Below, piece after piece: positions 52,359-55,831 of a stretch of DNA of 56,023 bases. Below the pieces are notes generated by a model that saw only the letters and a program-made list of their open reading frames with translations, ran no database searches and had not been told where the DNA came from. The translations under genes were made by a program, and so were the position numbers. This stretch comes from Monosiga brevicollis MX1 (Eukaryota > Opisthokonta > Choanoflagellata > Craspedida > Salpingoecidae). Within the stretch, counting starts at the first letter, position 1, and each line of letters opens with the position of its first letter. The stretch spans positions 277,845 through 333,867 of the forward strand of contig NW_001865053.1 of the NCBI RefSeq assembly GCF_000002865.3, written 5' to 3'.

Positions 52359-54302
52359 CTACCGTTGAATCAGCTTCTCACGTTCGTTCAGCTTCTCACG
52401 AACGTGCTCTGCTGTGCGTCCTTGCTCTTTCTTCTTGAGAAGAGTGGGCACTCGATCCCAAACGTTGTCGTTGTAGCTGCTCACAATCAAGCCAACGAGC
52501 CGTGGGTGATAAAAGGCGACCACCGCCGCCATCACGCCCAGTCGGAAGGCGTCTTCCGGCTTGCAATTCTCAACGAGTTCCGCAAACGTGGCTTCGTCCT
52601 CCGAGAGGCGAGAACCATCTTTCAGCAAATTGTCGATGGCGGCTTCGCCTTGGGCCACCTCAATTTTTGTGAGATGCTTGGCTTCCGCCACTGCCCTGAC
52701 GCTTTGAACACCTTGAAAAAAAGCATCCTTGTTCGGCTCGGTGGCCACTTGCGGTTGAGCCGGCATTGCCCCCGGCGTGTTGGATGGCTGATAGGCCATC
52801 GGAGGACCGTTGAGCCCCATGAAGCGTTTGAGATTCTTCTTCTGTGTTCGTCGGTGAAAGTCCTCCCTTGCCTTGGTACAGCCCGGATCGATTTGATCGT
52901 GAATCTGAGCAAAGAGCACGGTGATGAGGTAGTCCATTTGTGAGCCTTCGCGTCGAGGAAGTCCTTCAGCAGTGGTGCTGGATGACGCGGATGCGGCGGA
53001 AGTTGCGCTGGGCTCGCAGTAAGAGGCCCCCTCAGGTGGCACATGAACAAAGTCTTTTGCCGAAGCAACCTCAGGTGGAGTCTGCGCGGCGGAAGAGGAT
53101 ACATCCTTGGACCAGACGGCCTCGACACCATCTCCTAGGCCATCGTCAGGCGTATATGGGGTCTCACACAGGGCAGCTTGAAGGGCAGGGTCAGCTTGAA
53201 GGAATTTATCGAGAGCGAGCTTGCTAAGATCACAAAGCTGTGCCTTGACACGCTGCTCATGAAACTCCAACCAAGCGGGCAAGCCGTTCTCTGCAAGAAT
53301 CTTGAGGTAGTCACAAATTAGAGCCTCGACGTCGCTGACACGGTTGTGGATAACCGTAAGCAGTGCACGCAAGTGGGGGCTCTTCAGCCGCCGAAACAGA
53401 GCATCTCGCACCAACATGGCGAGCACCTGTTTCCAGCGCTCGTTGGCGTTGGCAAGTTCCAAGCGGAGGTCATACAGCTGCACTCCATTGAAGCTTGGGT
53501 TCTGCAAAATGGCTCGGTCGCTCTCCGACAATTTTGTAAGAACTTTGTACTTTCGCTCCTGGCAGGTGAGCATTTTACGCGTCAGCAAAACGTCGCCCCA
53601 AGCTGTCTGGCCCTGCTCTTCCATGGTGAACTCGAAGTTTCTGTCGGCTTCAATCTTCTCAGCTTGTTCAATGAGGCTTGACGCCGTGACGTCCACCATC
53701 AACTCTGCCAGAGTGGAATCTTGCTCGCTTTCGGGTTTGGCTTTGGCTGAGCTGTCAAGAACAGTGCTCATGTTGGCCATCTTCTCGTCGCACCTGCGTT
53801 CCTCGGCAGCCTTCTCAGCAGCAGCTTTCTCGGCGGCAGCTTTCTCAGCGGCAGCTTTCTCGGCGGCAGCTTTCTCAGCGGCAGCTTTCTCGGCGGCAGC
53901 TTTCTCAGCGGCAGCTTTCTCAGCGGCAGCTTTCTCGGCGGCAGCTTTCTCGGCGGCAGCTTTCTCGGCGGCAGCTTTCTCGGCGGCAGCTTTCTCAGCG
54001 GCAGCTTTCTCGGCGGCAGCTTTCTCGGCGGCAGCTTTCTCGGCGGCAGCTTTCTCGGCGGCAGCTTTCTCAGCGGCAGCTTTCTCGGCGGCAGCTTTCT
54101 CGGCGGCAGCTTTCTCGGCGGCAGCTTTCTCAGCGGCAGCTTTCTCAGCGGCAGCTTTCTCAGCGGCAGCTTTCTCAGCGGCAGCTTTCTCAGCGGCAGC
54201 CTTGTCAGCGGCAGCCTTGTCAGCGGCAGCCTTGTCAGCGGCAGCCTTGTCAGCGGCAGCCTTGTCAGCGGCAGCCTTGTCAGCGGCAGCCTTGTCAGCC
54301 AT
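52359..54302 (-). CDS. Intronless protein with long Ala-Glu-Lys repeat helix, function unknown
   Basis: One uninterrupted frame of 647 residues. After the initiator Met it consists of 33 five-residue units, 7 of ADKAA then 26 of AEKAA, encoded by a 15-bp minisatellite. Lys and the next unit's Glu or Asp stand four residues apart, which favours a single stable alpha-helix of about 165 residues (about 25 nm). The following 480 residues are not repetitive and mostly helical by composition: KANMSTVLD-like and SLIEQAEKIEADRNFEFTM segments, KVLTKLSESDRAIL, YDLRLELANANERWKQVLAM, SPHLRALLTVIHNRVSD. A Ser/Pro/Ala-rich linker follows. The end has DYLITVLFAQIHDQIDPGC, KKNLKRFMGLNGPPMAY, RLGVMAAVVAFYHPRLVGL and KLNEREKLIQR. 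I recognise no family. Long open frame and even codon use support a real gene. The lack of introns and its place next to a transposon suggest an element-borne or recently arisen gene. Confidence 0.6.
   Translation of the reverse strand: MADKAAADKAAADKAAADKAAADKAAADKAAADKAAAEKAAAEKAAAEKAAAEKAAAEKAAAEKAAAEKAAAEKAAAEKAAAEKAAAEKAAAEKAAAEKAAAEKAAAEKAAAEKAAAEKAAAEKAAAEKAAAEKAAAEKAAAEKAAAEKAAAEKAAAEKAAAEKAAEERRCDEKMANMSTVLDSSAKAKPESEQDSTLAELMVDVTASSLIEQAEKIEADRNFEFTMEEQGQTAWGDVLLTRKMLTCQERKYKVLTKLSESDRAILQNPSFNGVQLYDLRLELANANERWKQVLAMLVRDALFRRLKSPHLRALLTVIHNRVSDVEALICDYLKILAENGLPAWLEFHEQRVKAQLCDLSKLALDKFLQADPALQAALCETPYTPDDGLGDGVEAVWSKDVSSSAAQTPPEVASAKDFVHVPPEGASYCEPSATSAASASSSTTAEGLPRREGSQMDYLITVLFAQIHDQIDPGCTKAREDFHRRTQKKNLKRFMGLNGPPMAYQPSNTPGAMPAQPQVATEPNKDAFFQGVQSVRAVAEAKHLTKIEVAQGEAAIDNLLKDGSRLSEDEATFAELVENCKPEDAFRLGVMAAVVAFYHPRLVGLIVSSYNDNVWDRVPTLLKKKEQGRTAEHVREKLNEREKLIQR
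53806..54300 (-). repeat. 15-bp coding minisatellite, about 33 units
   Basis: On the plus strand the unit reads GGCAGCTTTCTC(A/G)GC, with a block of seven CTTGTC variants at the 5' end of the gene. In the coding frame it gives AEKAA or ADKAA. The variable A/G base is the third base of an Ala codon, so the Glu-type units differ only silently. Confidence 0.97.
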
Positions 54303-54843
<541 letters not shown>

Positions 54844-55831
54844 ATGGCGTCGGTGGTGTTGGTGTTGGTGGTGGCACCGGTGGTGTTGGTGGTCGTGGGT
54901 TTGGGGCTGCTGGCATCCTCTCATGCGTTGCGCCAGTACATCTTTGCCAATTGGCTCTGGCCTGGCTTGAGTGCGTGGTTTGGCTTGTGATTTGGAGGAG
55001 GAAACTGGGGCCGATCGCAAGGAAGGCTGCTCACGACGCTGGGGCCTTGTCTCGTGCTGGCGGGTGAATGTAGGTGAGCAAGTGGATGCCCAGCTTGCCA
55101 AGCGCAAGCGCGACACGTATACGGCATTGGCCACTGGCCGCGTGCTGGACGTGGGGTCGGGTGATGGCGTGAATCTGCCGTACCTTTTGGCGGCCAAGAA
55201 AGTGACCGAGTGAGTCTTGAGTCGCGTCTTCTTCCTTGATGCCGCTCGCCCAACTCTGAGCCGACTGCATCTCCTTGGCACATGCGCTCACTGCCCCTTT
55301 ATGATTGGCCCTGTGGTGGTTGATCGTCTCGCCAGGGTGGTTGCCATCGAGCCGAACCCCGACCTTTCCAAGCGCTTGAAAGCCCGGTCGGCGGCTTTTG
55401 TGGCTCAAGGTGAAACCGACATCCCCATCAAGACGCTGTGCTGCACTCTGGAGAATCTGCCGCAGCAGCAGCAATTTGACACCATTGTCTGCAACCTGGT
55501 CCTCTGCTCCGTGCCGAATTTGGTCGACAGCCTGAGGTGCATGCGCGAGCTACTGCGGCCCAACGGCCAGATTCTCCTGATTGAGCATATCCAGGACGAG
55601 CCATCAACGTGGCGGCACCGCTTGCAGCGCCTGGTCCAACCCCTGTGGGGCATCATTGGGGATGGCTGCCACCTCAACCGGCGGGTCGACCTCGCACTCC
55701 GGCGTTTGGGGTTTTACATTGATTACCAGGAGATCTTTGAGAACGACATGTCCTCGGACGTCGGCGGCGTGGCTTGGCTAGCAGGCCGGCACGTTGTTCT
55801 CCGGGCCTTTGCTCAGCCCCCACCCCGCTAA
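54844..55831 (+). CDS. METTL7/TMT1-type membrane-bound methyltransferase
   Basis: METTL7 (TMT1) proteins are monotopic SAM-dependent thiol methyltransferases of the ER and lipid droplets. Exon 1 (54844 to about 54969) encodes a hydrophobic anchor, MASVVLVLVVAPVVLVVVG, followed by YIFANWLWPGL. Exon 2 starts at about 55072 after a tag acceptor: EQVDAQLAKRKRDTYTAL, then the SAM-binding motif RVLDVGSGDGVNLPYL. After an intron (about 55210-55335), exon 3 has VVAIEPNPDLSKRLK, the acidic SAM-ribose-type turn, FDTIVCNLVLCSVPNLVDSL and LRPNGQILLIEHIQDEPSTW. It continues QPLWGIIGDGCHLNRRVDLA, matching the family's DPAWHLLFDGCNL region, and ends AQPPPR at 55831. Length and order fit METTL7. The SAM motif is intact. 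Confidence 0.86.

What the first reader, a model, noticed from the sequence alone, without database searches (positions are those of the whole stretch)
52359..54302. Natural (AEKAA)n rod of about 165 residues on an unknown intronless protein
Thirty-three five-residue units give regular Lys-to-acid spacing of four, the design rule for rigid single helices and close to the EAAAK linkers used in protein engineering. The following 480 residues match no family I know. The gene has no introns in an intron-rich genome, lies next to a MULE and has an array with homogeneous codons. This is the best candidate for an undescribed protein in the window.
Basis: partly seen in the sequence, partly recalled or inferred. 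Interest (0 to 1): 0.75.

Follow-up and report, generated by a model that had tools for sequence, protein, structure and literature searches.

The report
Choanoflagellate orphan gene with helical rod

Summary
The repeat is real: 33 perfect five-residue units (7 ADKAA, then 26 AEKAA) at 53805-54299, minus strand, start a 647-codon open frame. The genome is Monosiga brevicollis: one paralog's product equals the public protein MONBRDRAFT_38903. "Intronless, 647 aa" is wrong. The frame's stop lies in a 90-base intron; the gene has two exons and 667 codons. The intron position is shared by all three paralogs and supported by P0002, a public 206-aa predicted protein that maps here in two exons. The gene evolves as coding DNA: 7 of 7 internal indels against a paralog keep frame, while a methyltransferase copy duplicated alongside has decayed. 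Rod units differ between paralogs, but each rod is 137-170 residues rich in Ala, Lys/Arg and Glu/Asp with at most one Gly/Pro. AlphaFold2 draws this rod as one helix (pLDDT 93 to 66); the domain is unresolved (pLDDT 36) and matched nothing outside M. brevicollis in the searches made. Most likely: a lineage-specific protein with a helical spacer resembling single alpha-helix domains. Published Ala-rich designs self-associate, so a monomeric rod is not established. An unrelated frame on contig C38 carries a longer AEKAA array.

The parts
52363..54302 (-). exon 1, coding from ATG at 54302-54300; ends CG|GTAGGA
53805..54299 (-). rod array, 33 units of 15 bases, residues 2-166
   Evidence: helix 2-186 in the AlphaFold2 model
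54195..54299 (-). 7 identical ADKAA units (GCTGACAAGGCTGCC)
53805..54194 (-). 26 AEKAA units of 4 DNA types, differing only by synonymous changes
53148..53690 (-). conserved block 1, about residues 205-385 (limits set by eye)
   Evidence: alignment of three paralogs; dN 0.08 vs dS 0.94 in its most conserved 40-codon window
52944..53147 (-). variable Ser/Ala/Thr/Pro-rich linker, about residues 386-453 (limits set by eye)
   Evidence: gaps and low conservation
52380..52943 (-). conserved block 2, about residues 454-641 (limits set by eye); one 40-codon window has dN 0.08 vs dS 0.53
   Evidence: also covered by P0002
52209..52272 (-). exon 2, 20 more residues plus stop; the spliced protein is 667 aa

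Best explanation
A real, two-exon, protein-coding gene (A) of Monosiga brevicollis and one of three paralogs (A on C42, B on C24, C on C56) of a family not seen outside this species in the searches made. Each paralog begins with a charge-rich, alanine-rich rod of 137-170 residues that should form a helix, followed by a domain in two conserved blocks and a short second exon. Mechanism proposed: the rod is a helical spacer of about 21-26 nm that holds its N terminus away from the C-terminal domain. Its units expand and contract as a minisatellite, so unit and length turn over while helix formation, charge and absence of breakers are kept. Shown: the gene structure, coding constraint, shared architecture and composition of the rods. 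Inferred: transcription (P0002), helix formation (model of A and composition), unit turnover. Not shown: that the rod is monomeric or rigid, the cellular location, and any partner or activity of the domain.
For: P0002 maps to A as two pieces, C42:330221-330781 and 330056-330121, split at the predicted intron, with all 20 exon-2 residues identical. All three paralogs end exon 1 at CG|GTA(A/G)G with an acceptor and in-frame tail after 78-119 bases; the product of B spliced this way equals the public model P0001 letter for letter. A vs B domain: dN 0.263, dS 0.568 over 493 codons. In unconstrained DNA alignments of the A and B domains 7 of 7 internal indels (two aligner settings) or 8 of 8 (a third) are multiples of 3; an end gap is left out. 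By chance (1/3)^7 = 5e-4, or 1.4e-3 if one is taken as forced because both frames are open. The co-duplicated methyltransferase relic beside B has 7 of 8 frame-breaking indels in its last exon (a ninth, 3 bases at the stop codon, left out) and internal stops. Rods: A 170 aa, net 0, 58% Ala; B 137 aa, net +8; C 145 aa, net -13; Gly+Pro 0, 0, 1. A has no alanine face (moment at most 0.03, against 0.63-0.66 for the self-associating heptad designs EK1 and EK2; the monomeric EK3 design also gives 0.58). AlphaFold2 draws residues 2-186 of A as one helix, 10-residue means 93 to 66 up to residue 170.
Against: Charged fraction of the A rod is 0.41, against the up to 80% quoted for single alpha-helix domains. 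Designs with more alanine and fewer charges were not single helices, and my seam measure does not by itself separate them from the monomeric EK3. AlphaFold2 helix confidence on a simple repeat is no proof. Exon 2 alone shows no purifying selection (dN 0.277, dS 0.203, 20 codons). In the A array 3 of 4 distinct variants are synonymous, not significant (p 0.05-0.08). Shared composition of the rods may be common ancestry, not selection. P0002 is one contig-derived protein whose DNA and sample were not seen. No function of the domain is known.
Confidence: 0.55

Rival explanations
1. The array is a neutral minisatellite expansion in a tolerant N-terminal tail. The peptide has no role and only the C-terminal domain matters.
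For: Units are nearly homogeneous at DNA level (5 types in 33), which suggests recent slippage; unit type differs between A, B and C; synonymous-only variation is not significant in A.
Against: All three paralogs keep a 137-170 residue rod of similar composition although the units differ. In the unrelated C38 frame 5 of 5 distinct variants among 48 AEKAA units are synonymous (p 0.0009-0.002), so there at least the peptide appears constrained.
Confidence: 0.25
2. The rod is a self-associating alanine-rich helix (Alacoil-like bundle or condensate scaffold) that oligomerises the C-terminal domain.
For: Designs AEEAKKA (EK2) and AAEAAKA (EK1) dimerised or oligomerised (PMC5347031, section 4 read).
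Against: Those are heptad designs with an alanine seam (moment 0.63-0.66 near 3.5 residues per turn); the period-5 unit spreads charges evenly (at most 0.03). B and C carry net charge.
Confidence: 0.15
3. Pseudogene or spurious frame carried by a repeat.
For: No public full-length model of A was found; the array is open in several frames on both strands.
Against: Frame-preserving indels 7 of 7, dN/dS 0.46, shared intron, P0002 reading through the junction.
Confidence: 0.04
4. Chromatin protein of the histone H1-like kind, as the Pfam HC2 match suggests.
For: PF07382 HC2 scores 54.6 bits, above its cut-off of 40.
Against: The best stretch (29-189) lies mainly on the low-complexity rod, whose net charge is 0, and the domain nets -13; paralog B has no Pfam match at E up to 1.
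Confidence: 0.03

Closest known systems
Single alpha-helix (SAH, ER/K) domains
   Same: Long, charge-rich, Gly/Pro-free predicted helix with acid-base pairs at spacing four and no hydrophobic seam
   Different: 58% Ala and 41% charged instead of up to 80% Glu/Lys/Arg; perfect period of five; almost only K->E(+4) pairs; monomeric state untested
Engineered (EAAAK)n rigid linkers
   Same: Same composition and period (60% Ala, one acid and one Lys per five)
   Different: Chain-reversed order, so K->E(+4) in place of E->K(+4); natural and 165 residues long
MONBRDRAFT_38903 (P0001), public M. brevicollis protein
   Same: Paralog B of this gene, 57-61% identical over the domain, same 3' intron and N-terminal start MADKAA
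   Different: Rod built of other units (KKKAADEE type), net +8
TolA-like Ala/Lys/Glu helical stalks (recalled, not compared here)
   Same: Ala/Lys/Glu-rich long helix as spacer
   Different: Bacterial, membrane-anchored; no sequence link was tested

Membership tests
Single alpha-helix (SAH) domain | High fraction of Glu, Lys, Arg (up to 80%, PMC5812594 passages; no lower limit seen there) | tested here: inconclusive
   Charged (D, E, K, R) 41% in the A rod, 67% in B, 54% in C
Single alpha-helix (SAH) domain | Opposite-charge pairs at i+3 or i+4 along the helix | tested here: met
   A: 19.4 K/R->D/E(+4) per 100 residues, other classes 0.0-0.6; B and C have all four classes
Single alpha-helix (SAH) domain | No hydrophobic or alanine seam as in coiled coils | tested here: met
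   Moment at most 0.03 for 3.4-3.8 residues per turn; one VILMFYW residue in 170
Single alpha-helix (SAH) domain | Helical and monomeric in solution | not testable with these tools
   AlphaFold2 helix 2-186 only; no measurement
Histone H1-like HC2 (PF07382) | Profile score over the curated cut-off | tested here: met
   54.6 vs 40 bits, mainly on low-complexity sequence
Histone H1-like HC2 (PF07382) | Strongly basic protein (recalled) | tested here: not met
   Rod net 0, domain net -13
Paralog family of MONBRDRAFT_38903 | Homologous C-terminal domain | tested here: met
   57% over 98%, E 4.7e-153
Paralog family of MONBRDRAFT_38903 | Shared 3' intron position and exon-2 tail | tested here: met
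   3 of 3 paralogs; in C the tail is short and only partly alike
Any known domain family (C-terminal part) | Match in Pfam, NCBIfam, PHROGs or solved structures | tested here: not met
   Pfam 0 for A (C alone: OST48_N at E 0.1, chance level), NCBIfam 0, PHROGs best E 0.038, PDB by sequence best E 0.41 and 1.5
MULE transposon neighbour | Match to Pfam MULE (PF10551) | tested here: not met
   0 in five nearby ORFs, 0 in the genome at E <= 0.001

The most novel reading that the evidence does not exclude
Natural (AEKAA)n rods are a selected helical ruler that arose at least twice in one choanoflagellate: on this orphan three-gene family, and on an unrelated C38 frame (40 units in a row, 48 in all, 11 DNA unit types, only synonymous differences among them). 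The orphan domain that it projects is a new fold or a fold diverged beyond recognition.
Probability: 0.3. Interest if true: 0.55.

Novelty: new member of a known kind. Interest (0 to 1): 0.36.

Why it matters
If the rod is a monomeric helix, M. brevicollis offers a natural, long, near-perfect counterpart (in reverse order) of the EAAAK linkers used by protein engineers. It also gives paralogs in which the unit changed but the physical character stayed, so the sequence rules of long single helices could be tested on natural material. The orphan domain is an uncharacterised choanoflagellate protein family with, as far as these searches reach, only one full-length annotated member.

Tried and rejected
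Viral or bacterial origin: 0 relatives in viral contigs (231 stretches matched a pattern, none confirmed) and 0 in genome contigs (87 stretches, none confirmed). PHROGs only chance level. Both contig scans used two short peptide patterns each, so distant relatives could be missed.

Fold of the domain: AlphaFold2 on A plus P0001 (2 sequences) gave pLDDT 36, pTM 0.25; no fold search was run because the matches would be meaningless.

Recent block duplication inside the array: a five-unit block occurs twice in tandem, but 1656 of 5000 shuffles do as well; dropped. Selection on the A peptide from synonymous variants alone: not significant. One search also printed a six-variant figure for C38; the right count is five, recomputed. 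One search gave nine frame-keeping gaps of which two lay at the ends of the alignment; the count used here is that, with exon 2 as anchor, and the figure of eight is superseded.

Literature: no paper with MONBRDRAFT_38903. AEKAA in 46 papers, of which 25 titles and abstract openings were seen and none appeared to describe a natural rod. Two papers hold both 'choanoflagellate' and 'single alpha-helix' (listing only). A four-term search on salt-bridge orientation and EAAAK found 0. Listings only. Of PMC5812594 I saw passages; of PMC5347031 passages and section 4. Bacterial promoter scan of 54303-54850 found nothing and is not informative for a eukaryote.

Full report
What is there. The frame 52359-54302 on the minus strand is real and starts with 33 units of five residues. 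By codons there are 7 identical ADKAA units followed by 26 AEKAA units. The AEKAA units come in 13, 11, 1 and 1 copies of four DNA types that differ only by synonymous changes. The array is the highest-scoring tandem repeat of 29 rows in the window.

Organism and family. A protein search with residues 168-647 gave 1 hit among 7994 scored candidates: MONBRDRAFT_38903 of Monosiga brevicollis MX1 (P0001, 57% identity over 98%). The spliced product of the paralog on contig C24 of the window's own genome equals P0001 letter for letter, so the genome is M. brevicollis or a very near strain. The domain alone finds four matches in the 39.5 Mb assembly, belonging to three loci: A (this gene), B on C24 (61%) and C on C56 (34 and 36% in two pieces). 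A profile search of the protein database again found only P0001 (1 of 7992). A shorter query found P0002 (1 of 7816). By the tool's length rule these searches admit proteins of about 356-1132, 276-876 and 166-526 residues, so a full-length public model of A or C does not seem to be in that database.

The intron. All three frames end in CGG followed by TAA or TAG and G, which is a 5' splice site read as Arg-stop. Splicing at CG|GTAGGA to CACACAG|T in A, and at the matching sites in B and C, removes 90, 78 and 119 bases. It adds RLNQLVSPSTSMPSTRTAYSE, RLEQLVSPTAPSPSTPTACPE and RLEASKQLTTPNS, where the R is completed across the junction, and gives proteins of 667, 646 and 585 residues. P0002 (206 aa, source label lgn, contig of 953 bases) is 178 of 186 identical to A in exon 1 and continues through the junction with the exact A tail, 20 of 20. 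In the own genome it maps to A as two pieces separated by the predicted intron, and to no closer locus. I read it as a spliced transcript contig of an allele or strain variant; that the label means an assembly of sequence-archive reads is recalled, and an intron-less genomic copy is not excluded. It lacks six residues of A near the end. 'Intronless' and '647 residues' are therefore wrong.

Is it under selection? A against B over 493 codons of the domain: dN 0.263, dS 0.568, ratio 0.46. The two most conserved 40-codon windows have dN about 0.08 with dS 0.94 and 0.53. In free DNA alignments of the domain with exon 2, 7 of 7 internal indels (two aligner settings; 8 of 8 in a third) are multiples of 3, and identity is 1085 of 1467. 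Upstream of both genes, in the opposite orientation, lies a methyltransferase gene, with an open frame at A (Pfam Methyltransf_11, E 1.9e-9). At B it survives as a relic with 665 of 931 bases identical, 7 of 8 indels in the last exon breaking frame (one more of 3 bases at the stop codon not counted), and internal stops. This neighbour is a control duplicated along with the gene: it decayed while the rod gene stayed open. Against: exon 2 alone has dN 0.277 and dS 0.203 over only 20 codons; and because B was found as an open frame, the indel test is not fully independent of its choice.

The rod. Units differ between paralogs: AEKAA/ADKAA in A, KKKAADEE-like in B, AEAEEARKA-like in C. Length is 170, 137 and 145 residues, Ala 58, 31 and 39%, charged 41, 67 and 54%, Gly+Pro 0, 0 and 1, net charge 0, +8 and -13. 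This suggests that helix formation, not a particular unit, is kept, though common ancestry explains part of it. In A the only frequent pair is K->E(+4). PMC5347031 (passages) cites K->E(+4) as the more stabilising order; PMC5812594 (passages) says the opposite. AlphaFold2 with two sequences draws residues 2-186 as one helix, with ten-residue means between 93 and 66 up to residue 170; only A was modelled. PMC5347031 section 4 (read) reports that lower-charge, alanine-richer heptad designs oligomerised. The period of five avoids their alanine seam in my moment calculation, but the monomeric design EK3 scores 0.58 on that measure too, so only an experiment can settle it.

A second array. Contig C38 holds an unrelated frame with 48 AEKAA units, 40 in a row, in 11 DNA types; Lys is AAG in 48 of 48, and all 5 distinct codon variants among these units are synonymous (p 0.0009-0.002 under random mutation). 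That frame also has a few longer AEAAEKAA-type units and one ADKAA. Gene A uses AAA in 25 of 33 units. The codon choice suggests independent arrays, and the C38 pattern suggests selection on the peptide itself. Whether C38 is a complete gene was not worked out.

The domain. Pfam 0 families for A, NCBIfam 0, PHROGs chance level, PDB by sequence none below E 0.4. The structure model of the domain is unusable (pLDDT 36); it is drawn as mostly helix, which carries little weight. The Pfam HC2 match over cut-off falls mainly on the rod and is taken as a composition effect; the rod of C draws another low-complexity match below cut-off (PF05403). Function is therefore inferred from architecture only: a domain in two conserved blocks with an N-terminal helical spacer. 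No obvious membrane segment or signal peptide was seen by eye; no predictor was run.

Verdict. A genuine gene, apparently without a full-length public model, in a family seen only in M. brevicollis here, with an SAH-like rod; gene structure corrected. Moderate interest.

Noticed in passing
L003:1291-2721 (-), own genome C38:351898-353328: Unrelated frame with 48 AEKAA units (40 consecutive), 11 DNA types differing only synonymously, all Lys as AAG: a longer and apparently better-constrained natural AEKAA rod than the one given.
   Followed up: partly
window 54844-55831 (+): Methyltransferase gene (Pfam Methyltransf_11; METTL7-like by recalled motif) divergent from the rod gene; its copy beside paralog B (L014:1390-2267) is a decayed relic.
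   Followed up: yes
window 54700-54819: (AC)60 dinucleotide array in the gap between the two divergent genes.
   Followed up: no
window 53344-54501 (+): 385-residue antisense open frame through the array reading (FSAAA)n; probably a side effect of the 15-base repeat.
   Followed up: no
   Followed up: partly
L007, own genome C54:1963991-1967365: Clustered Ala/Gln/Glu/Arg-rich repeat frames (AQERAA type), another helical-looking repeat.
   Followed up: no
window 52383-52400, seen against P0002: P0002 lacks six residues near the end of exon 1 of A, a length polymorphism or close-paralog difference.
   Followed up: partly
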